DNA of 48,557 nt, from assembly GCA_016929635.1 (NCBI GenBank), contig JAFGIL010000058.1, forward strand, positions 1 through 48,557, read 5' to 3'. How positions within the stretch are numbered: position 1 is the first letter of the stretch; each line of letters opens with the position of its first letter. A model generated the notes under the pieces. It saw only the letters and a program-made list of their open reading frames with translations, was not told the origin of the DNA and did not search any database. Below are positions 79-11,629 of this stretch, one piece after another. Made by a program: the position numbers and the translations under genes. This DNA is from Endomicrobiales bacterium (lineage in GTDB: Bacteria > Elusimicrobiota > Endomicrobiia > Endomicrobiales > JAFGIL01).

Positions 79-1008
79 TTATAGTTTGAAAGTCAGTCCC
101 AGCCTGTGCGTAGCACTAAAATCTTCAAAAGGAGTCCAGGCATAATCAAAACTTATCTTACCTAGATTGATACCCATCCCCCATGAAAATCCGTTTAACG
201 GGCTTGAACCCAAATCTCCATACTTCAGCTGATATCTATATCCGGTTCTTAGTGTTACGACTTTATATAAATTACTTTCAAATCCAAGCTTCAGGAGCTT
301 AACATTATCATAATAGACAACCAGCTCGCCTATCACAAAATGCCTTTCTTTAACGCAGGAGCCTACTCCCACATAACCGCCGCTCGGAAGATTATACCCT
401 TTAACAGCCGGCCCCAGGTTAAAAACTCCGAAACTTAAAATTTCTCCTTTTTTCTTATTGAAATATAACCCGGAGAATGATAGCATCGAGCCCAGCGTGG
501 TTTTGCCGTCAACATTTTCTCTTGCTATCTTGACTCCTGCCCCCAGAGAAAAATTACCCGAAACTTTTTTCCCGTAAGTTAAGTTGACCAGGTTATCCGA
601 AAAAGTAAAAGTGCCTTTTTTGGAATATCCGTAAGCATTGCTTGCGTCATACTCTGTTCGCACAAGCCCCCCCACACCCAAAACGCCTGCGGTAACGCCG
701 AAAGACGAGCTTTTGTTTATAGGCGCTGCATATGTCATCAAACTGTAATTAGTTTCTGATATATAAGACATATGCTGCAAATTTATCTCCTTTTCTTTTA
801 CCTGGGTCAAAGCAGCCTGGTTTACCATCAATGATTGGGACGACGGTTTTGAATAAACGCCGCCCATTGCAGAAGTTACCGGGGAAGGGTCCAGTTTAAG
901 AAATGCAAAAATGCTCGTTCCCACGGAAGCGCCGCGCACCTTGCTGCAGCTGAGAGAACCAAATATGAACAGTAGAATTAAAGTAGTTACAAATATTTTT
1001 ATTCTCAT
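79..1008 (-). CDS. PorV/PorQ-like outer-membrane beta-barrel protein
   Basis: The 309-residue protein starts with a hydrophobic signal segment ending near a Ser-Cys pair (residues 20-21), which could be a lipobox-like site or an ordinary signal peptide. The N-terminal block FLKLDPSPVTSAMGG followed by an N-x-A-A-L motif resembles the opening of the PorV/PorQ family (UPF0164), in which FLK...AMGG and NPA motifs are typical. The remainder is alternating amphipathic strands ending in an aromatic-rich C-terminus, as in outer-membrane barrels. It is 12 bp downstream of the M6 protease gene, so the two are probably co-transcribed. In Bacteroidota PorV is the shuttle of the type IX secretion system; that this protein exports its neighbour is inference. 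Confidence 0.62.
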   Translation of the reverse strand: MRIKIFVTTLILLFIFGSLSCSKVRGASVGTSIFAFLKLDPSPVTSAMGGVYSKPSSQSLMVNQAALTQVKEKEINLQHMSYISETNYSLMTYAAPINKSSSFGVTAGVLGVGGLVRTEYDASNAYGYSKKGTFTFSDNLVNLTYGKKVSGNFSLGAGVKIARENVDGKTTLGSMLSFSGLYFNKKKGEILSFGVFNLGPAVKGYNLPSGGYVGVGSCVKERHFVIGELVVYYDNVKLLKLGFESNLYKVVTLRTGYRYQLKYGDLGSSPLNGFSWGMGINLGKISFDYAWTPFEDFSATHRLGLTFKL

Positions 1009-1020
1009 AAAACCCCAAAA

Positions 1021-2703
1021 CTATCTGACTATTACCATCTTTCCTGTTTTAACGATGTCTCCCGCTTCCAGCCTGTAAAAATACACCCCGGGTGCGACGT
1101 TTTCCCCGTCAATGTTTTTCCCGTCCCAGTCATACTCATATATGGCATTATTGATGTCTGAAACGGCGGCATTCATAATTATCTGTTCTTTGCTTGCTTT
1201 TTGCACTTTCTCGCCCGCTATGTTGTATATCTCAAGCTCCCTGTCTGTAATTACTCCGGAAAAATTCAAAACGAACGTTGTGATTATGCCGCTGTCCTGT
1301 TTCGGATGAAAGTACCCGTTGCCTGCGGGATTAGGATAATTAACTACGTCCGTAACGCTAAACTCGCCATTTAAAGTCGCGTTCGTTATGTTAAAAGATG
1401 CCTTGCCGCTTTTAATCGAAATATTCACAATGTTCATCTCTGCTTTTGTTCCCTCATAAGATTCCGGAGATATTAATATTCCTTTAAGCCCGGGCCAGGG
1501 ATCGTTCTTATCCCCGTAGGGAAACTCACTGGGATGCGAGTAATCGGCCGGGATTATGTCCACTGTATTGTGGCTGTAGTTATTGATACTGTTATTCTCA
1601 AACCTCTGATGAAAGGATTTATCGTCAATTACGCCTTCGTCAATGTGCCATATCAGGATTCCCTCTCCGGGATAGGATGGATTATACTCCGACTGTTCGG
1701 AAAAACAGATTAAAAGGTATTCTGTTTCCGAGAAATTAACCTGATAAACATTATCAGGCGATTCCTGGATCGGGTCTATGTCTCCCAGCTCCAATGAAAA
1801 TTCAACTAGCTTTGGTTTAACCCATCCCAGATATTTTTTGCACCATACAGAAAGATGCGCAGGCTTTGACCCCATGCTTATCCAGCTTCCCATGTCCATA
1901 AGGCACCATCTGCCGATAGCAGATGAGCCTTCTGATGTGTTGTATAAGTCGGGGAGCCCCAGCACATGGCCGAACTCATGACAGGTAACGCCGATAGTGC
2001 TCGCGTTCTGCTCTCTTGCCGGAACAACCACACCGTCCCTGAAGCCATAGGTTATTTTCGTTATCTTTACAAAAGCCGACCATATGTCCCCGTAATTAAA
2101 AGTTGACTCATTTCCGTATCCCGCATGAGCAATAAATACCGCATCATATTTGGACGACGTAACCTGTTTCTCCTGCGAGTTAGCTGCTATCAATCCGTGC
2201 AGAATCAGCTTGTTAAGCCCCCACCCGTCGCCTACCTCATCGCCGAGCCCGTAGTATGATATTGATTTATCCAACGTAAAAGGCGTTTCATTCCCTGTTA
2301 AAACGTTCGAACTCCCTCCTTCATAGAAAAACGTATATTCAAGATCAAGCTGGTTGTATGAGACTTCAGCGTAGTAGTTCTTCAGGTATTCAAAAGTTTC
2401 ATTAAAACCCAGCAAATCATCCTGCGTCATTTCATTTGCTTCGGAGGTATTGTAGCCGGCTGATTCAAAATTAACCAGTATAACCGCAATTTCTTTTGTG
2501 CCTGTAGGTTTGGAAATCCCGTTTTTAACCATTCCCGATTTAGACGTTATTATCTGTTTTGTTTCCCTGACATGTTCTTTCGGGCCTGTGAGATTCTCGG
2601 TTATATGCGGAACTGCAATTACTTCCCTTGGAAAACAGAAAGCCGATAAAAGAAGGCTTGCCGTACAGAGTATTTTGTTTATTTTTAGGATTGAGTGCTT
2701 CAT
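1021..2703 (-). CDS. Secreted M6-family metalloprotease with C-terminal FlgD/sorting-like domain
   Basis: This 560-residue protein has an N-terminal signal peptide (about residues 1-30), a catalytic region with HEFGH at residues 242-246 followed by LGLPDLY, and the later Met-turn-like WCLMDMGSW. HExxHxxGxPD is the signature of peptidase family M6 (immune inhibitor A type zinc proteases). The last 110 residues begin YPNP and end with APGVYFYRLEAGD..KTGKMVIVR, the pattern of FlgD Ig-like or type IX secretion C-terminal domains. The ATG has a good AGGAG ribosome site. Together with the adjacent PorV-like barrel it is likely an exported, surface-attached or released protease. Its substrate is unknown. 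Confidence 0.85.
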   Translation of the reverse strand: MKHSILKINKILCTASLLLSAFCFPREVIAVPHITENLTGPKEHVRETKQIITSKSGMVKNGISKPTGTKEIAVILVNFESAGYNTSEANEMTQDDLLGFNETFEYLKNYYAEVSYNQLDLEYTFFYEGGSSNVLTGNETPFTLDKSISYYGLGDEVGDGWGLNKLILHGLIAANSQEKQVTSSKYDAVFIAHAGYGNESTFNYGDIWSAFVKITKITYGFRDGVVVPAREQNASTIGVTCHEFGHVLGLPDLYNTSEGSSAIGRWCLMDMGSWISMGSKPAHLSVWCKKYLGWVKPKLVEFSLELGDIDPIQESPDNVYQVNFSETEYLLICFSEQSEYNPSYPGEGILIWHIDEGVIDDKSFHQRFENNSINNYSHNTVDIIPADYSHPSEFPYGDKNDPWPGLKGILISPESYEGTKAEMNIVNISIKSGKASFNITNATLNGEFSVTDVVNYPNPAGNGYFHPKQDSGIITTFVLNFSGVITDRELEIYNIAGEKVQKASKEQIIMNAAVSDINNAIYEYDWDGKNIDGENVAPGVYFYRLEAGDIVKTGKMVIVR

Positions 2704-2742
2704 TTTTTTCTCCTGTTATGGAGTGTTCACATCAATCCTATC

Positions 2743-2759
2743 TGCAATAACTGTGCCAA
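2743..2759 (-). promoter_or_regulatory. Sigma-54 (RpoN) promoter for the protease/PorV operon
   Basis: On the minus strand this reads TTGGCACAGTTATTGCA. It matches the -24/-12 consensus TGGCAC-N5-TTGC(A/T) completely, with GG and GC separated by exactly 10 bases. It lies 39 bp before the ATG of the M6 protease, followed by a good ribosome binding site. Sigma-54 promoters need an AAA+ activator bound upstream; a candidate site is the inverted repeat at 2771-2801. Confidence 0.78.
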
Positions 2760-2770
2760 TTGACTTAACT

Positions 2771-2801
2771 CAATACTCTAAAATAATTATCGTGAGTATT
2801 G
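2771..2801. promoter_or_regulatory. Inverted repeat, candidate activator (enhancer) site
   Basis: The 8-bp arms CAATACTC (2771-2778) and GAGTATTG (2794-2801) are perfectly complementary with a 15-bp AT-rich spacer. The arm-centre distance is about 23 bp, so both arms face nearly the same side of the helix. It starts 11 bp upstream of the sigma-54 element, which is closer than many enhancer sites. Binding by a regulator is inference. Confidence 0.45.
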
Positions 2802-2922
2802 AATTTATAGATATGCATGTGTCATACTTAAAACAAAGTTGTTTCATAATTAAACATATTGAATTTCCAGACATTTTTATATGTCTCATTTTTGATACAT
2901 TTTTCCATAAATAATAACAAAT

Positions 2923-2954
2923 AAAAAACCACTTGAATAATCAAGTGGTTTTAA
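2923..2954. terminator. Rho-independent terminator downstream of arsC (works in both directions)
   Basis: The arms AAAACCACTTGA (2925-2936) and TCAAGTGGTTTT (2941-2952) form a perfect 12-bp stem around an ATAA loop. On the minus strand the stem runs into a T-run, ending the arsC/PiT transcript. It also has a short T-tract on the plus side. Confidence 0.85.
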
Positions 2955-2993
2955 TATGGGCTATTAGAAATTTAGATTACTATTTATGCATTT

Positions 2994-3407
2994 TTAATTA
3001 ATATTTAATTCTTCCTGCAGCCAATCCTTTATCTCATCTCTGACTCGTTTAAATCCAGAAAGCAGCTCCTCATCGCTGCCCTTTAATTCTGAAGGATCGT
3101 CAAAAGCTTTGTGTATATACTTTGTTGCACCCGCAACAAATGGACAATCTTCTTTCCCGGTATTGCATAAAGTTATAACATAGTCAAATTTAATATTTTT
3201 AAATTCATTAATATGCTTGGGCCTTTGATTTGAGGCATCAATGCCTATATCTTTTAAAACATTAATTGTTATGGGATTAATTTTAGTTGGCCGGGTTCCT
3301 GCACTGTATACTTCAAAAACATTTCCATATAGACTGCGCATTATCGCTTCTGCCATTTGAGAGCGGTTAGCATTATGCGTACAAATGAATATAATTTTTT
3401 TCTCCAT
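2994..3407 (-). CDS. arsC: Arsenate reductase, low-molecular-weight phosphatase type (thioredoxin-coupled family)
   Basis: The protein of about 137 residues has the phosphatase loop CTHNANRS (C9 and R15, CX5R), the general-acid DDP near residue 105, and the resolving pair C81 and C88 in TLCNTGKEDC. These three elements together mark the pI258-type ArsC family, which reduces arsenate to arsenite using thioredoxin. I chose the ATG at 3405-3407; a TTG two codons upstream would also be open, and neither has a clear Shine-Dalgarno. It follows a PiT phosphate transporter gene by under 30 bp. This fits its job, since arsenate enters cells through phosphate carriers. No arsenite pump is visible in the window. 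Confidence 0.88.
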   Translation of the reverse strand: MEKKIIFICTHNANRSQMAEAIMRSLYGNVFEVYSAGTRPTKINPITINVLKDIGIDASNQRPKHINEFKNIKFDYVITLCNTGKEDCPFVAGATKYIHKAFDDPSELKGSDEELLSGFKRVRDEIKDWLQEELNIN

Positions 3408-3435
3408 TATCAAGGGGGGTCCGGGATAATGATGT

Positions 3436-5700
3436 TTATTCTATATCAAACTCAAAGGCATTATTTTCTTTTCCGAAAGTCTCATCAAATATTTTGAGAA
3501 GTTTTAAATTCTCCTTGGAAATCATTATGGCATTGCCGATTATGGCATAGAACAGAATACTAAGGCGTGTTTTTGACTCTTCTTCCCTTATACGGTCCAT
3601 CTGCAGTTTATGAAGCTTACTTGCAAGATTTTTTAAGTTATTATTTTTCTCGATAACTGCAGCGATCCTGTTTGAATGCCTTCTGCTAAAAGTCTTTTCA
3701 CAATCAAAAAGAATGTCATGTAGTATTTCTTTTACTGCCTTTAGCTCTTCTATTTGGACATCCAAAAGCCCTTTATGATGATTACTCACATGCATATACG
3801 CACGCATTACTATGTCTCTGTGCCCGTCAGCGAGTTTCTGCAAAGCCCTGATTGTCTGCCCGTATTTATAAGAAAGGTCTACCCTTTCTTTCTGCAGCAA
3901 CCTCATAGATTTAAACACATTTGCCACTACTATATTAGCCCATTTCTGGAATCTTTTTGACTTATTACTTTCAACCCTTAAAGCATATGCATTCTGGTTA
4001 AAAAGGGCTTCTAAACTAATATCCAACGATTGCCTGATCTCGCAAAGAAGGTAGGATATATGCTCAAAAGTGGTAGATATTGACTCTTGTATATCTGTAA
4101 TCTTTGTCAGATTGAATACTTTAGTCTGGTCTGTCCCCTTTTTACGTTCATTGAATTTATGATGCTGCTTCCATATGATTACTCCGGATAAACCTATCAA
4201 TAAAAAGATTCCGGGTGCTTTGGTATAATACAAGATAGCAGCAACAACTGCCGACATCGTAAATGCAAGCAAAGCCGTCATAAACCAGCCGCCTATCACG
4301 GTTAACACACCGCTTACTCTATATACCGCGCTTTCCCTGCCCCATGCATGGTCGGCAAACGACGTTCCCATTGCAACCATGAAAGTTATGTATGTGGTTG
4401 ACAGAGGAAGTTTTTTCGAGGTGGCGTATGATATTATCGCGCTTGCAACCATAAGATTTACTGAAGCCCTCAGCAAATCAAAGGACGGGCGGTTTTCCGT
4501 ATCTATATTTGCATGATAATGAGTTAAATCAAACCGGTTATTAATCCATTTACGCAAAGGAACAGGGACAAACGTTCTGCAAGTATTAAAAAAATCTATA
4601 AAAAGCCTGACTATTACTCTTGATAATGTTATTGATTCGAACATCTCTACTCCCTCTTCCTGCCGTCCAAGGTTTAAAGAGGTTTCTGTAACACCTTTTG
4701 CTTTATTTGAAAACCACAGGGTGATAACCATTATAGCTCCTGCAATCAGAAGCAGGTATGTGCTGGTTGGAACTTCTGCGGCCATCATTTTCATGCTTAC
4801 TGTCAAAGGGTTTTCTGTTAAAAGAGCAGCTTTATAGGAATGGTATCCGGCTATAGGCACCCCTATGAAGTTCATAAGGTCATTTGCCGCGAAAGCCATG
4901 GCAAGGGCAAACGTTCCTATGAGAACTATCGGTTTTAGTATATTTACTTTCAGGAAAATCATTATTTGCAGAACTATGGCTGAAATTACGAAAATACCGG
5001 ATATTATATTTAAAGTATTTGCTCTTATCCACGCCACTGTTTCATCAGTCATAAAAGATGTACCCTTGGCGCCTTTAACGAGAATAAAATAAACGATAAC
5101 TGAAAGCGCGATCCCGCCCCAGATAGCGCCATAGCTTTTCATCCTCTTTTCAAAGTCAAAAGTAAATATAAGCCGTGAAACAAACTGTATTACAGCCCCG
5201 AAAAAAAAGGCAATAACAACCGAAAGCAGTATGCCCATTATTATTACCATTGCTTTGTTTGTATTTATATAATGCGACAGAGAAGAAATTCCTTCGTGTA
5301 ACCGCGCAACTTTTATTGCAGAAACCGAAACCGCAGATCCAAGGAGGCCGAACACTATTTGAACTGTTGTTGAGGTAGGAAGGCTGTAAGTATTGAATAA
5401 ATCTATAAGCACAACGCCGCTCATCATTACGCCCAAAAATATTATAATAAGCTCGGGCATTGTGAAGAATTCCGGATGAAATATTCCTTTTCTTGCAACC
5501 TCCATCATCCCGCTGGAAAACGTGACGCCCACAAGAATACCCAGGCATGCAGTTATCATTATCACATAAATAGGCGCTACTTTTGACCCTATGGCAGAGT
5601 TGAGGAAGTTTACGGCGTCGTTACTGACCCCGACTGCCAGATTAATAATGGCAAAAAGGATAAGAATAACTATCGCTAAGATAATAATTTCCAAACTCAC
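3436..5700 (-). CDS. PiT-family phosphate transporter with C-terminal PhoU-like helical domain (copy 1)
   Basis: The 754-residue membrane protein carries both PiT signatures, SNDAVNFLNSA (residues 26-36) and ANDLMNFIG (272-280), within about 500 residues of hydrophobic segments. These match Pho4-type inorganic phosphate symporters. The last 220 residues are polar, helical and PhoU/DUF47-like, so transport and regulation may be fused. The start is GTG, supported by GGAGGC ten bases upstream. It is paralogous to the copy at 5931-8201 over its whole length. arsC follows directly, probably in the same transcript. Cation coupling (proton or sodium) cannot be told from the sequence. Confidence 0.88.
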   Translation of the reverse strand: MSLEIIILAIVILILFAIINLAVGVSNDAVNFLNSAIGSKVAPIYVIMITACLGILVGVTFSSGMMEVARKGIFHPEFFTMPELIIIFLGVMMSGVVLIDLFNTYSLPTSTTVQIVFGLLGSAVSVSAIKVARLHEGISSLSHYINTNKAMVIIMGILLSVVIAFFFGAVIQFVSRLIFTFDFEKRMKSYGAIWGGIALSVIVYFILVKGAKGTSFMTDETVAWIRANTLNIISGIFVISAIVLQIMIFLKVNILKPIVLIGTFALAMAFAANDLMNFIGVPIAGYHSYKAALLTENPLTVSMKMMAAEVPTSTYLLLIAGAIMVITLWFSNKAKGVTETSLNLGRQEEGVEMFESITLSRVIVRLFIDFFNTCRTFVPVPLRKWINNRFDLTHYHANIDTENRPSFDLLRASVNLMVASAIISYATSKKLPLSTTYITFMVAMGTSFADHAWGRESAVYRVSGVLTVIGGWFMTALLAFTMSAVVAAILYYTKAPGIFLLIGLSGVIIWKQHHKFNERKKGTDQTKVFNLTKITDIQESISTTFEHISYLLCEIRQSLDISLEALFNQNAYALRVESNKSKRFQKWANIVVANVFKSMRLLQKERVDLSYKYGQTIRALQKLADGHRDIVMRAYMHVSNHHKGLLDVQIEELKAVKEILHDILFDCEKTFSRRHSNRIAAVIEKNNNLKNLASKLHKLQMDRIREEESKTRLSILFYAIIGNAIMISKENLKLLKIFDETFGKENNAFEFDIE

Positions 5701-5930: not shown

Positions 5931-8201
5931 TTAATCGAGTTCAAATTCCGAATCTATCTCCTGATTGCTGAAACTTTCATTAAAGATTTTCAAAAGTTTA
6001 AGATTTTCTTTTGAAATCATTATAGCATTGCCAATAATGGCGTAATACAAAATACTAAGCCGCGTCCTGGATATGTCTTCGCTGATACGGTCCATCTGAA
6101 GTCTGTGTAATTTTTCTGCCATATTTTTCAGCTCTCTGTGTTTGATAGCCATAGATTCAAACCTGCTTGAATGCTCGCGGCTAAAAGCTTTCTGAGAGTC
6201 TAAGAGAATATCATGAAGAAGGTTTGCAACACCCCTGAGTTCTTCCTTTTGAGCATCCAAAAGGCCCCTGTAATGGTTCCTTACATGATGAAAAGAACGC
6301 ATGGTTATGTCCCTGTGCCCGTCAGCAAGCTTTTGAAGCGCACGTATCGTCTGTCCATACTTGTAAGAAACGCCCGAATGTTCCCTTTGAAGCAGCCTTA
6401 GAGATTTGAATATATTTGCTACAATAATATTTGCCCATCTCTGGAATTTTTTTGTTTTATTTTTTTCAATCCCGAGGGAATATTTGTTTTGTTCAAGCAA
6501 TGCTGTTATTGTTGTGTCCAGAGACACCCTGAGCTCCTGCAATAAAATTCCTATATGCTCAAAAGTAGTTGATATCGAAGTGTTTATATCCTTAACCTTC
6601 CTTAAATTAAACACCTTTTCCTGGTCAGCGCCTTTTTTACGCTCGCCGAATTTATGATTATGCTTCCATACTATTAAGCAAGCTGTAATTACTAAAAAAA
6701 TTATGCCCGGTGCTTCTGTATAGTACATAACAGTGGCGGCAATACATGACATTGTAAAAGCAAGAAAAGCAGTCATAAACCATCCGCCTATTACGGTTAA
6801 AACTCCGCTTACCCTGTAAACCGCGCTTTCCCTGCCCCACGCCTGATCCGCAAATGACGTTCCCATAGCTACCATGAATGTTATGTAGGTTGTTGAAAGG
6901 GGCAGTTTTCTGGAAGTAGCATAAGATATTATCGCGCTTGCAACCACAAGGTTCACCGAAGCTCTCAAAAGGTCAAAAGACGGCCTGTTATCCTTATCGA
7001 TGTTTGCGTGATAATGGGATGCGTCAAATCTCCCGGCAATCCAGTTTTGCACAGGAACAGGCACTAGGAATCTAACCATATTGGAAACGTTTATAAACAA
7101 CTTTACGATAACCCTGGATAATGAAATCGATTCAAACATCTCAACACCTTCCTCCTGACTGCCAAGGTTGATGGAAGTTTCCGTAACACCTTTGGCTTTC
7201 TTTGATATCCACAAGGTTATAACCATAATTAATCCTGCCAGAAGAAGCAGGGCCGTGCTTGTAGGCACTGTTTTACTTAGCATTCCCATTGTTGATAACA
7301 AAGGTGCATCCGTTAAAATCGCTGCTTTATATGCATGATAACCTGCCATAGGCACACCGATAAAATTCATAAGGTCATTTGCCGCAAAAGCCATGGCAAG
7401 GGCAAACGTGCCTATAAGAACAATAGGCTTAAAAATATTCACTTTAAAAAATATCAGTATCTGAAGCAGTACGGCTGACGCCACAAACATAACTGATATT
7501 ATGTTAAAGCTGTTTGCCTTTATCCATTCTACGGTTTCTTTAGTCATAAAAGATGTGCCTTTAGCTCCTTTAACAAGAATAAAATATACAATCAGAGAAA
7601 GAGCTACGCCTCCCCATATCGCACCGTATCTCTTTATGCGCTTCTCATAATTAAACGTAAATACAAAACGCGAGACAAACTGCGCTGCCGAACCGCAGAC
7701 AAATGCCACCGCAACCGAAAGAAGTATCCCGAATATAATTATCATGGCTTTACTTGTGTTTATATACTGCGCCAGCTCTGTCAGGCTGCCGTGTGTATTA
7801 TAGATTTTGATTGCGGAAATCGCAACGGCAGCCCCCAGGAGTTCGAACACTATCGACACCGTGGTTGATGTAGGAAGCCCGTAAGTATTAAACATATCAA
7901 GCAGTATAACGTCAGTTATCATTACGCCCAGGAATATGACAATCAGTTCCGGCATTGTAAAGAAACCCGGATGAAAAATGCCTTTCCGTGCCACTTCCAT
8001 CATCCCGCTTGAAAACGTAACGCCTGCCATAATACCCAGGCTTGCGACAATCATTATCACAGAAAACGGGGCGACCTTTGAACCTATAGCAGAGTTCAAA
8101 AAATTAACGGCATCGTTGCTGACGCCGACAATCAAATCAAAGATTGCAAAGAAAACCAAAATAACTATCGCAAAGATAATAATTTCCAGTCCTATTCCCA
8201 T
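5931..8201 (-). CDS. PiT-family phosphate transporter with C-terminal PhoU-like helical domain (copy 2)
   Basis: The 756-residue protein has the same architecture as copy 1: SNDAVNFLNSA near the N-terminus, AND at residues 274-276, two blocks of membrane segments, and a PhoU-like tail from about residue 540. The ATG at 8201 has AAAAGGAG seven bases upstream. It starts 34 bp after the porin stop codon, so both very likely sit on one transcript from the Pho-box promoter. Copy 2 would then be the phosphate-starvation-induced carrier, while copy 1 is linked to arsC. That functional split is inference. Confidence 0.88.
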   Translation of the reverse strand: MGIGLEIIIFAIVILVFFAIFDLIVGVSNDAVNFLNSAIGSKVAPFSVIMIVASLGIMAGVTFSSGMMEVARKGIFHPGFFTMPELIVIFLGVMITDVILLDMFNTYGLPTSTTVSIVFELLGAAVAISAIKIYNTHGSLTELAQYINTSKAMIIIFGILLSVAVAFVCGSAAQFVSRFVFTFNYEKRIKRYGAIWGGVALSLIVYFILVKGAKGTSFMTKETVEWIKANSFNIISVMFVASAVLLQILIFFKVNIFKPIVLIGTFALAMAFAANDLMNFIGVPMAGYHAYKAAILTDAPLLSTMGMLSKTVPTSTALLLLAGLIMVITLWISKKAKGVTETSINLGSQEEGVEMFESISLSRVIVKLFINVSNMVRFLVPVPVQNWIAGRFDASHYHANIDKDNRPSFDLLRASVNLVVASAIISYATSRKLPLSTTYITFMVAMGTSFADQAWGRESAVYRVSGVLTVIGGWFMTAFLAFTMSCIAATVMYYTEAPGIIFLVITACLIVWKHNHKFGERKKGADQEKVFNLRKVKDINTSISTTFEHIGILLQELRVSLDTTITALLEQNKYSLGIEKNKTKKFQRWANIIVANIFKSLRLLQREHSGVSYKYGQTIRALQKLADGHRDITMRSFHHVRNHYRGLLDAQKEELRGVANLLHDILLDSQKAFSREHSSRFESMAIKHRELKNMAEKLHRLQMDRISEDISRTRLSILYYAIIGNAIMISKENLKLLKIFNESFSNQEIDSEFELD

Positions 8202-8235: not shown

Positions 8236-9339
8236 TCAGAACTTATACGTTAAATCAAGCTGTCCGAGATCGCATTTTTTATCGCCGGCCTCTTCTTTTG
8301 CCTCGCCGCTGATATAATAGTCCACGCCTAAAGTAACGTTTTCAGCCAATCCATACGTAAATACAAATTCCGGGCCTGCGGTATCGGTTCTTCCGTCTCT
8401 TGCGTCTGAATCAGAAAGCCAGTCCATCCATGCATCCTTGCCGAGGCTTCTGTACACGGCTTTTGCCTGCCATTGCCCGTATGATTTTATTTCTTCTGCG
8501 CCAAAAACAATGCCGGCAAGCAACCCGGTATTCTCTTCGGACGGGTCAGGATTGGACACATACTCGCCGAAAAACGCAGATTTATCAAAATAAGGATTAT
8601 CAAAAGTTAAATTAAATCCCAGCGACATACAATTGTAATCATACAAATAGCTCCCTCCGGTTAATGTGTTAGATGCGCCCGCGTTTGCGCTTGCCGCAAA
8701 AGCCGGAGCATTTTTGTGCCCGGAAAGTATGTATTTGGCAGCATTTAATTCCAGCTTTACGCCATCATTTATCTGTATAATTACCCCGGGCTGAACGACT
8801 GTCATTGAAGGATCGTTCCCGTTATCTGCATAGTCCATTATAAGATAGTCAACGTTTCCAAAAAACCGCAGCTTTTTCGAATCCGACATGTAACCGGCCG
8901 CAATACCCTCTACTGCGATATCACTATCCCATAATAGGTCGCCGTGGGTTTTTATGGCTTTTTTTACAGGAATCTTACCTGTTTTAATATTTAAGCCTTT
9001 GACTCCTTTAAATGACCCATATGCATAATCCAGGTTGAATGCCTTTGTTTCAAAACCATTATCCAGAGTCTGGTTTGTTGAACGCGGGTCGGTTCCGCCT
9101 GTTGCAAACCCCCAGGCTACCAGCCAATCCTTTACGGGCATTGCTTCGCCCTGAAGCCTGAAACGGATTCTTGCCCTCTCCCTTCTGTACGTACTTCTGT
9201 CTTCATTCTGATAACGGAATCTCAGATCTCCCCCTATTTTCATACTTTGGACCCAGGAGAGCGTTTTACCAGGCTCTTCCGCCTTTACCGCACCTGCAGC
9301 GCACATTGTGCATAAGACCAAAACAGATAACTTTTTCAT
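8236..9339 (-). CDS. Putative outer-membrane porin, likely phosphate-regulated
   Basis: The 367-residue protein has a clear signal peptide (MKKLSVLVLCTMCAAGAVKA), then GDLRFRYQNEDRSTYRRERARIRFR, an opening seen in putative porins of the Porin_5 type. The remainder is beta-strand-rich and ends LDLTYKF with the terminal aromatic of outer-membrane barrels. A strong AAGGAGG ribosome site precedes the ATG. It leads the operon with PiT copy 2 and lies behind a Pho-box array next to phoR. An anion or phosphate diffusion role, as in OprP/PhoE, is suggested by context; the sequence itself does not show selectivity. Confidence 0.72.
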   Translation of the reverse strand: MKKLSVLVLCTMCAAGAVKAEEPGKTLSWVQSMKIGGDLRFRYQNEDRSTYRRERARIRFRLQGEAMPVKDWLVAWGFATGGTDPRSTNQTLDNGFETKAFNLDYAYGSFKGVKGLNIKTGKIPVKKAIKTHGDLLWDSDIAVEGIAAGYMSDSKKLRFFGNVDYLIMDYADNGNDPSMTVVQPGVIIQINDGVKLELNAAKYILSGHKNAPAFAASANAGASNTLTGGSYLYDYNCMSLGFNLTFDNPYFDKSAFFGEYVSNPDPSEENTGLLAGIVFGAEEIKSYGQWQAKAVYRSLGKDAWMDWLSDSDARDGRTDTAGPEFVFTYGLAENVTLGVDYYISGEAKEEAGDKKCDLGQLDLTYKF

Positions 9340-9490: not shown

Positions 9491-10933
9491 TTATGAAAGT
9501 TGTAACGGCAGGATTATTCTGAACCCGGTCCCCGTGCCTTGCCGGCTTTCCACATCTATGGTTCCCTGATGAAGCTGTATGATATGTTTGACTATTGAAA
9601 GCCCGAGGCCCGTACCACCGAACTTCTTTGACCTGGACTTATCTGCTACATAAAACCTTTCAAATATGCGGTTCAAATGCTCTTTGGGAATACCTATACC
9701 AGTATCTTTTATATCAATGATTGTATTTGTTTCATCCTGATTAACTTCGATAGATATACTTCCCTTTTCCGTATATTTTATTGCATTATCAATTAAATTT
9801 ACAAATACCTGCTCGAGCCTGAAAGAATCCGCTTGAATAGGTTTAAGGGATCCGGTTTTGCTTAATCTGAGTTTAAGCTTTTTTTGTTTAATTCTGTCAT
9901 CGAACAGTTTTATTACATCATTTATTAGATTAATAATGTTTACTTCCGTTAACTCTATTTTAAACTTCCGGCTTTCAAGGTTTGACAGAACCAAAAGGTC
10001 GTTAACTATATTTATTAGCCTTTCCGAATGTTTAAGAATTATATCCACATAACGCGCGGATTCCTTTCTGGCAGCAGGTTTTGAACTTTTTACTGTTTGT
10101 TTCAGTGTTTCGGTGAAACCTTTTATTGCGGTAAGGGGTGTGCGCAGCTCATGTGACACATTAGTTACAAAATCTTTTCTAACAGCCTCCATGTGCTTTA
10201 GCTCTTTAAAAAGAGCTCCTACCTTCTCGGTCATATTATTAAAACTGTCTCCGAGCTGTTTTAGCTCGTCGCTGTTTTTTATATGTATTTTTGCATTAAA
10301 ATCACCCGAACCTACCTTTTCGGCAATCAGGCTCAATTCCCTGACAGGATCAGATATTCCTTTTGCAAAAAAATATGAGCCTAACAGCGCCATGATTATA
10401 AAAAAGAACGTCAGCCTTATCATATTGCCTTTCAGGACAGCGGTCAGGTCGCCGATATCCTTTAAAAATATGCTTGCCCTTAATACCCCGTATATGTTCT
10501 TCCCGTCATCTATCGGTATTGCAAGATAAAGCATCTCCTTCTCGAGAGTAGAGCTGTACCTTATAGATGTGCTTCTTTCTTTGCCGCTAAAGGCTTCTTT
10601 TACCTCCGGCCTGTTGCCGTGATTATCCATGTGCTCCGCTTCTTCCTCGGAATCGGCAACCACAGTGCCGTCCGGAGATATTATAGTTAACCTGGTATTT
10701 GTTTTCTCCGAAATGTCTTTAATGATTGGTTTAAGTTTTTTATAATTATGTTTTTTTAATGGCGGTTTTATTGCATATAAAGATACGTCTGCAATACTTG
10801 CCAGTGAGCGGGTTAAGGTAGATATGTACTGTTGCCTTATGACCTCAAACGAGGAAAAAAGTATCAGAATTGAAAAGATAACAAGTATTACAGCATTAGC
10901 GCTGAATATTTTTGAAAATATTGTCCGCCACAC
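9491..10933 (-). CDS. phoR: PhoR-like sensor histidine kinase
   Basis: The 480-residue kinase has TM1 (about 12-30), an extracytoplasmic sensor domain (about 35-165), TM2 (about 172-190), HAMP, HisKA with phospho-acceptor H261 in VSHELRTPL, and HATPase with N box (NLIDNAIKYT), G1 (DTGIGIP) and G2 (GGTGLGLSIV). It starts 6 bp after the phoB-like gene, so the two are co-transcribed. The architecture matches PhoR/WalK-type kinases. The phosphate role rests on the adjacent porin, PiT genes and Pho box. There is no PstSCAB-PhoU operon nearby, so how it senses phosphate is open. Confidence 0.85.
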   Translation of the reverse strand: MWRTIFSKIFSANAVILVIFSILILFSSFEVIRQQYISTLTRSLASIADVSLYAIKPPLKKHNYKKLKPIIKDISEKTNTRLTIISPDGTVVADSEEEAEHMDNHGNRPEVKEAFSGKERSTSIRYSSTLEKEMLYLAIPIDDGKNIYGVLRASIFLKDIGDLTAVLKGNMIRLTFFFIIMALLGSYFFAKGISDPVRELSLIAEKVGSGDFNAKIHIKNSDELKQLGDSFNNMTEKVGALFKELKHMEAVRKDFVTNVSHELRTPLTAIKGFTETLKQTVKSSKPAARKESARYVDIILKHSERLINIVNDLLVLSNLESRKFKIELTEVNIINLINDVIKLFDDRIKQKKLKLRLSKTGSLKPIQADSFRLEQVFVNLIDNAIKYTEKGSISIEVNQDETNTIIDIKDTGIGIPKEHLNRIFERFYVADKSRSKKFGGTGLGLSIVKHIIQLHQGTIDVESRQGTGTGFRIILPLQLS

Positions 10934-10939
10934 CTTTGA

Positions 10940-11629
10940 TTATTCCTCCAGCTTATATCCGACACCTCTTATATTCTTAATAAGATTAGCAGAACTCCCG
11001 AGCTTCTCCCTGAGGTGCCTGATATGCACGTCAATCGTCCTGTCAACCACGATTTTCTCCTGCCCCCATAAATGGTTCAGTATCTGGTCCCTGGTAAAAA
11101 CTTTTTCTTTATTCGATGCAAGCAGTTCAAGTATTTTAAACTCCGTAGTTGTCAGGCTGATTTTCTTATTATTCAGTTCAACACTGTATTTATCCAAATC
11201 AACAACGACATTCCTTCCAACCTGGATTCTTCTGGCACCTTCTGTTTCTTTTTTCCCGGAGTTCCTGCGAAGCACTGTTTTTACTCTTGCCACAAGCTCT
11301 TTTGGAGAGAAAGGTTTTGTGACATAATCATCAGCGCCTATTTCCAAACCAACTATCTTGTCGGTTTCCTCCCCTTTTGCGGTTAGCATAATTACCGGGA
11401 TATGAGAGTATCGTTCATCTTTTTTCAGCGTTTTGCATACTTCAAATCCGTCCGCATCAGGCAGCATCAGATCCAGAATAATCAGATCAGGTTTCTTTTT
11501 GGCAATATGCCTGAAGAAGCTTTTTGCATCCTCGAACTTGAAAGGCTTGTATCCTGTTTTTTTCAGATGGATTGACACCAGCTCAGATATGTCAGCTTCA
11601 TCTTCAATTATAGCTATTAATTCGTTCAT
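10940..11629 (-). CDS. phoB: PhoB-like OmpR-family response regulator
   Basis: The 229-residue regulator has a receiver domain with D53 (LDLMLPD), T83 and K105, and a C-terminal winged helix with RTIDVHIRHLREKLG and a final IRGVGYKLEE. This is the standard OmpR/PhoB layout and length. A GAGG ribosome site precedes the ATG. It is the first gene of the pair with phoR. It is the expected binder of the TTAACA repeats at 9441-9484; no such repeats are visible at its own promoter. Confidence 0.88.
   Translation of the reverse strand: MNELIAIIEDEADISELVSIHLKKTGYKPFKFEDAKSFFRHIAKKKPDLIILDLMLPDADGFEVCKTLKKDERYSHIPVIMLTAKGEETDKIVGLEIGADDYVTKPFSPKELVARVKTVLRRNSGKKETEGARRIQVGRNVVVDLDKYSVELNNKKISLTTTEFKILELLASNKEKVFTRDQILNHLWGQEKIVVDRTIDVHIRHLREKLGSSANLIKNIRGVGYKLEE

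What the first reader, a model, noticed from the sequence alone, without database searches (positions are those of the whole stretch)
2743..2801. Sigma-54 promoter plus dyad controlling an exported protease
TTGGCAC-N4/5-TTGCA matches the -24/-12 consensus with exact spacing 39 bp before the M6 protease ATG, and a perfect 8-bp dyad lies 11 bp upstream. Sigma-54 control of a secreted protease with its presumed outer-membrane partner suggests activation by a specific signal through an enhancer-binding protein.
Basis: partly seen in the sequence, partly recalled or inferred. Interest (0 to 1): 0.55.

Follow-up and report, generated by a model that had tools for sequence, protein, structure and literature searches.

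The report
Enhancer-driven sigma-54 switch for secreted protease
An uncultured bacterium appears to switch on an exported protease through a rare kind of promoter that needs an activator bound further upstream; the promoter that was pointed out looks real, but the likely activator sites are two other palindromes, and a similar arrangement stands before a few other cell-surface genes.

Summary
The -24/-12 element is real (window 2758-2743, minus strand, exact spacing, 39 nt before the M6 protease ATG). The genome (probably Elusimicrobiota) has one divergent, short rpoN and one NtrC-type enhancer-binding protein (EBP), encoded beside it with a hybrid histidine kinase. Three other intergenic TGGCAY-N5-TTGCA sites stand 35-41 nt before an ATG. 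All four share a block from -26 to about +9, with nothing comparable in the 60 bp upstream. The likely enhancers are two 18-bp palindromes, TGTNTYA-N4-TRANACA, at 2818-2835 and 2882-2899 (centres -94.5, -158.5). A pilin-like operon has the same pair (-123.5, -155.5). A further exact copy led to a fifth sigma-54-like promoter that was not used to derive the motif; two of the four siblings lack it. So sigma-54 plus EBP control of the M6-PorV operon is well supported by sequence; the dyad as control site is not. In rpoN-bearing relatives 19 of 32 rpoN-like genes lie within 4 kb of an EBP, suggesting dedicated sigma-54/activator pairs. No expression data were available.

The parts
2743..2758 (-). 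-24/-12 promoter element TGGCAC-N5-TTGCA
   Evidence: one of 3 exact TGGCAC-N5-TTGCW places in the genome
2724..2758 (-). Extended promoter block, -26 to about +9, shared with three other promoters; inferred +1 at 2732 (12 nt past the C of -12, by convention, not measured)
   Evidence: 7 of the first 14 columns past the core invariant in four sites; 2 of 60 columns upstream invariant
2818..2835 (.). Proposed EBP enhancer 1, palindrome TGTNTYA-N4-TRANACA, centre about -94.5
2882..2899 (.). Proposed EBP enhancer 2, same palindrome, centre about -158.5, 64 bp from enhancer 1
2770..2802 (.).
1021..2703 (-). M6-family metalloprotease, 560 aa, HEFGHVLGLPD motif intact, borderline C-terminal sorting domain
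   Evidence: TIGR03296 129 bits, cut-off 110.8
79..1008 (-). PorV/PorQ-family outer-membrane protein, 12 nt downstream of the protease gene, probably co-transcribed
   Evidence: NF033709 93.4 bits, cut-off 90
2925..2952 (-). Terminator-like hairpin after the upstream gene, separating it from the protease operon
   Evidence: 12-bp stem, T-rich tail; 2 such sites found in 2600-3100, shuffles mean 0.1
2710..2714 (-). Ribosome-binding sequence AGGAG of the protease gene
   Evidence: read

Best explanation
The stretch is a sigma-54 promoter for an M6 protease-PorV operon. A divergent, short RpoN with core polymerase binds the -24/-12 element and stays closed until the genome's one recognisable NtrC-type EBP, made beside rpoN with a hybrid histidine kinase, binds the two TGTNTYA-N4-TRANACA palindromes at -94.5 and -158.5, loops over and opens the complex. 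The same activator would switch on a pilin-like operon and a DUF4384/WD40 operon, and perhaps an HD-domain protein and a 58-aa protein, making a small surface-related regulon. Shown here by sequence: the promoter element, its three extended-type siblings, the palindromes, rpoN, the EBP and the kinase genes. Inferred: binding, looping, the phosphorelay, the start site and the signal, which is unknown.
For: Exact element and rpoN. One EBP at 240 bits; the other three PF00158 hits score 31 bits or less. EBP and hybrid kinase genes overlap and are divergent from rpoN. Four intergenic promoters with 35, 39, 39 and 41 nt to an ATG. Extended pattern: 4 places at 0 mismatches (by construction), none at 1-2, two at 3, reversed control 0; in 0 of 100,000 random-offset sets were 7 of 14 columns invariant as in the four. 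In about 615 kb of this genome 6 places match the palindrome exactly; 5 of them lie 59-123 bp from a sigma-54-like site pointing away, at three promoters; the sixth and the 7 one-mismatch places have none. One of the five (C16b) was not used to derive the palindrome and revealed a TGGAAT-N5-TTGCAG promoter I had missed; at the score it reached (9.5) a random position has such a neighbour in 19 of 4000 trials, 2 of 4000 if ending TTGCAG. Spacings of 64 and 32 bp are close to whole helical turns. No EBP at E 1e-25 in 8 of 8 rpoN-free genomes tested.
Against: Not conserved: in 36 other loci with an M6 relative (33 with at least 300 bp before the first possible start) no same-strand site of 9 of 11 or better lies within 500 bp before that start. 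Two of the four siblings (C72, C16a) lack the palindrome at up to 2 mismatches in 300 bp upstream. In the window alone the 2 palindromes are not rare: 15 of 100 shuffles have 2 at up to 1 mismatch. The palindrome was first seen by eye in the M6, C72 and C31 regions, so the shuffle test (2 or more sites in 2 of 2000, 4 or more in 0 of 2000) is circular; in the window plus 400 kb, 3 of 200 permuted palindromes also had 3 exact matches, mean 0.37. Reversed-pattern controls are too lenient (47 against 11 in rpoN-free genomes). RpoN is far below the NCBIfam cut-off (41.4 against 277.35 bits), and Pfam's activator-interacting and core-binding domains are not among the 7 families listed for it.
Confidence: 0.72

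Rival explanations
1. One reading: the EBP, or another specific regulator, acts at the 9-bp dyad at -54.
For: The dyad is real and close to the promoter; in the 60 bp just upstream only 12 of 1000 shuffles reach 9 bp, a window chosen afterwards.
Against: Ordinary in the whole intergenic region (22 of 300); exact dyad unique in the genome, and none of the places at up to 3 mismatches is at another promoter of this type, although only one EBP was found. Inverted repeats listed upstream of the siblings have other sequences.
Confidence: 0.08
2. The -24/-12 match is a chance sequence and the operon is transcribed from a housekeeping promoter.
For: Motif counts per Mb are no higher in rpoN-bearing than in rpoN-free relatives; the site is not conserved at M6 relatives.
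Against: No minus-strand sigma-70-like site of 9 of 12 in 2600-3100; extended block shared with three promoters; intergenic placement goes with rpoN; palindrome association.
Confidence: 0.1
3. Promoter and palindromes are real, but the palindromes bind a different regulator that cooperates with or represses sigma-54 transcription.
For: No binding data; two of the four extended promoters lack the palindrome.
Against: One EBP was found and the palindromes lie at -94 to -158, the usual enhancer range (recalled), at three promoters. Relatives whose EBPs have another recognition helix carry other repeats, TTGCACA and TTGTGC-N5-GCACAA.
Confidence: 0.1

Closest known systems
Sigma-54 promoters driven by NtrC/AtoC-family enhancer-binding proteins
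   Same: -24/-12 element, distant palindromic sites, response-regulator EBP with AAA+ domain and Fis-type HTH
   Different: Conserved block reaches about +9; RpoN is short and divergent; EBP L1 loop reads GAYTDA rather than GAFTGA (recalled)
Cereibacter (Rhodobacter) sphaeroides RpoN paralogues with their own EBPs (PMC11999139, passages read)
   Same: Each studied sigma-54 copy works with a particular activator; that paper calls the organism exceptional
   Different: There shown by genetics; here inferred from linkage (19 of 32 rpoN-like genes within 4 kb of an EBP) and from counts, equal in 13 of 21 genomes
Sigma-54 as controller of the bacterial exterior (PMC3162934, passages read)
   Same: Several targets here look exported or envelope-related; that paper names Elusimicrobium minutum as lacking sigma-54, in line with rpoN-free families here
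   Different: The passages read do not treat rpoN-bearing Elusimicrobiota
Survey of sigma-54 regulons in 16 phyla (PMC12316311, passages read)
   Same: Reports that about 5% of its organisms carry more than one rpoN copy, so several copies are known
   Different: Not among the papers listed for Elusimicrobi plus RpoN
Chlamydia trachomatis sigma-54 regulon (PMC7482065, search listing only)
   Same: A sigma-54 regulon linked in its title to membrane reorganisation and secreted effectors
   Different: No sequence comparison made

Membership tests
Sigma-54-dependent promoter | GG and GC at exact spacing within TGGCAC-N5-TTGCW | tested here: met
Sigma-54-dependent promoter | rpoN in the genome | tested here: met
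   divergent
Sigma-54-dependent promoter | Enhancer-binding protein in the genome | tested here: met
   one at 240 bits
Sigma-54-dependent promoter | Repeated upstream activator site (usual range recalled) | tested here: met
   by sequence only; two of the four extended promoters lack it
Sigma-54-dependent promoter | Start about 12 nt past -12 and dependence on RpoN | not testable with these tools
   needs RNA and genetics
RpoN (sigma-54) | DNA-binding domain with RpoN box | tested here: met
   PF04552 34.8 bits (cut-off 22.8); box read; 20 of 20 aligned members match PF04552 at E up to 1
RpoN (sigma-54) | NCBIfam equivalog cut-off | tested here: not met
   TIGR02395 41.4 against 277.35 bits; so described as a divergent sigma-54-like factor
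RpoN (sigma-54) | Activator-interacting and core-binding domains | tested here: inconclusive
   not among 7 families listed for the protein, nor among the 25 of 63 families shown for 20 members; profile comparison with one full-length RpoN aligns from position 148 of 461 on
M6 peptidase | Family domain and HExxH | tested here: met
Type IX secretion cargo | C-terminal sorting domain | tested here: inconclusive
   TIGR04183 23.5 bits, cut-off 23; PF18962 and PF13585 below cut-off
Type IX secretion cargo | Core secretion machinery in the genome | not tested

The most novel reading that the evidence does not exclude
Elusimicrobiota carry a lineage of short, divergent sigma-54 factors, many wired to their own neighbouring activator and enhancer motif, so that sigma-54 acts as a private switch for small surface or biosynthetic regulons; in this genome the factor reads a promoter that extends to the start site.
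Probability: 0.4. Interest if true: 0.7.

Novelty: new variant of a known kind. Interest (0 to 1): 0.5.

Why it matters
It gives a concrete, testable regulon (promoters, enhancers, activator, kinase) for a little-studied, mostly uncultured lineage. It also suggests that pairing one sigma-54 with one activator, called exceptional in C. sphaeroides (PMC11999139, passages read), may be common in Elusimicrobiota. Three searches of the held library (Elusimicrobia with sigma-54; Elusimicrobi with RpoN; Elusimicrobi with enhancer-binding protein) listed 2, 4 and 4 papers, none with a title or abstract opening about this.

Tried and rejected
The dyad as a shared enhancer: rejected. Conservation of the promoter at M6 relatives: not found. 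The extended motif as a phylum-wide element: rejected; a looser form at up to 2 mismatches hits 83 of 119 genomes, including many rpoN-free ones with up to 6 hits, so it is background there, and the 10 intergenic sites of relatives do not share it (mean pairwise identity 0.30 over 14 columns, against 0.67 in the four). A search for common 5-bp dyads in the four upstream regions gave AT-rich patterns within the shuffle range. A 7-bp scan of the four was also within range (TGTCTCA-N4 60.8; best of 12 shuffles 61.2), though TGTCTCA-N4 ranked first for M6, C72 and C31, without a shuffle test. The palindrome was first seen by eye in M6, C72 and C31 and then tested on other sequence; the C72 copy is weak (10 of 14) and was dropped. 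Dropped before the count: two partial rpoN matches below the family cut-off (G090:C14, G100:C14). Confidence in the best explanation was lowered from 0.75 to 0.72 on checking, because the reversed-pattern controls proved too lenient.

Full report
Observation. The -24/-12 element TGGCACAGTTATTGCA is at 2758-2743 on the minus strand, 39 nt before the ATG of the M6 protease. A terminator-like hairpin at 2952-2925 follows the upstream gene, so the operon probably needs its own promoter; no minus-strand sigma-70-like site of 9 of 12 was found in 2600-3100. The dyad at 2771-2801 is there, but 22 of 300 shuffles of the 212-bp region hold a perfect inverted repeat as long, and the exact dyad occurs once in the genome, with places at up to 3 mismatches equal to the control, 10 and 10.

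Where it is. The window is one contig of a 2.23-Mb genome in 77 contigs, 90% complete.

The machinery. One rpoN-like gene was found (match C16:38055-38462; 348-aa protein). It is divergent: PF04552 34.8 bits (cut-off 22.8) but TIGR02395 41.4 against 277.35. A profile of it and 19 relatives finds a solved RpoN chain at E 2.5e-22, over the C-terminal half. One true EBP was found (240 bits; three other hits at 31 bits or less), with receiver, AAA+ and Fis-type HTH domains, its gene overlapping that of a hybrid histidine kinase and divergent from rpoN.

Sibling promoters. Of five listed TGGCAY-N5-TTGCA sites in the genome, four lie just before an ATG, with 39 (M6), 35 (C72, a 58-aa protein), 39 (C16, an HD_5 protein) and 41 nt (C31, an operon in which 2 of 4 proteins carry the N_methyl pilin motif) between. 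One search listed 100 of 106 one-mismatch places, so a few TGGCAT sites may be unlisted. By the mechanical rule used for relatives the M6 site would not count as intergenic, because of a spurious antisense ORF; then it is 3 of 5 against 1 of 30 in rpoN-free relatives, p = 0.006. In rpoN-bearing relatives 10 of 30 examined sites are intergenic (30 of 45 hits fetched), in rpoN-free ones 1 of 30 (30 of 47). Raw counts per Mb do not differ, which speaks against using the motif alone, and the reversed pattern is a lenient control (47 against 11 in rpoN-free genomes).

Extended promoter. The four sites agree from -26 to about +9: 7 of the first 14 columns past the core are invariant, against 2 of the 60 columns before it. 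An extended pattern built from the four finds them at 0 mismatches, none at 1-2, two at 3 and none in the reversed control. The 10 intergenic sites of relatives do not share it. M6 relatives lack the site: in 36 loci no same-strand site of 9 of 11 or better lies within 500 bp before the first possible start.

Enhancers. Comparing the upstream regions showed the palindrome TGTNTYA-N4-TRANACA twice at M6, centres -94.5 and -158.5 (window 2818-2835, 2882-2899), and twice at C31, centres -123.5 and -155.5. C72 and C16a lack it at up to 2 mismatches within 300 bp upstream. In about 615 kb of this genome 6 places match exactly; 5 lie 59-123 bp from a sigma-54-like site pointing away, while the sixth and the 7 one-mismatch places do not. 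One of the five, beyond the HD_5 gene, led to a promoter TGGAAT-N5-TTGCAG before a DUF4384 gene followed by a WD40 gene. It had not been used to derive the palindrome; at its score random positions have such a neighbour in 19 of 4000 trials. The window count alone would be unremarkable (15 of 100 shuffles), and the earlier systematic scan of the four regions stayed within shuffle range.

Phylum view. rpoN matches occur in 22 of 119 genomes searched, 21 over the cut-off, none of them in family f6. In 21 rpoN-bearing genomes including this one I tallied 32 rpoN-like genes and 36 EBPs; 19 rpoN-like genes lie within 4 kb of an EBP; the counts are equal in 13 of 21 genomes, and two genomes (G002, G108) showed no EBP. 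Of eight rpoN-free genomes searched none had an EBP at E 1e-25. In three relatives (G102, G104, G110) a sigma-54-like site follows the rpoN-EBP pair, before a gene that Pfam calls a ketosynthase in the one scanned (L242) and that looks alike in the others; upstream lies TTGCACA once in 3 of 3 and a second time in 2 of 3. Their EBPs share a recognition helix unlike that of this genome.

Conclusion. The promoter and the EBP reading are well supported by sequence; the dyad reading is not. Binding, start site, signal and regulation are untested.

Noticed in passing
window 3436-5700 and 5931-8201: Two similar PiT-type phosphate transporters in tandem, next to a Porin_5 protein (8236-9339) and a two-component kinase-regulator pair (9491-11629), with an arsenate-reductase-like protein (2994-3413) upstream.
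   Followed up: no
L074 (G000:C36:5373-7061): A second M6 protease, 48% identical to the window's, in the same genome; the contig ends about 25 bp before its start codon, so its promoter is not visible.
   Followed up: partly
L242, L243, L244: rpoN-EBP pairs followed by a sigma-54-like site, a ketosynthase-like gene and a gene that looks like a B12-binding radical SAM protein (label by eye), with TTGCACA repeats: a possible private biosynthetic regulon.
   Followed up: partly
L171 (G003:C17): The closest rpoN relative in the alignment (40% identity) ends before the RpoN box.
   Followed up: no
window 2797-2814 and 2857-2874: An 18-nt direct repeat, 83% identical, 60 bp apart; one copy overlaps an arm of the dyad, the other lies between the two proposed enhancers.
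   Followed up: no
L260:19623 (G000:C16): One exact match to the proposed enhancer palindrome with no sigma-54-like site nearby.
   Followed up: no
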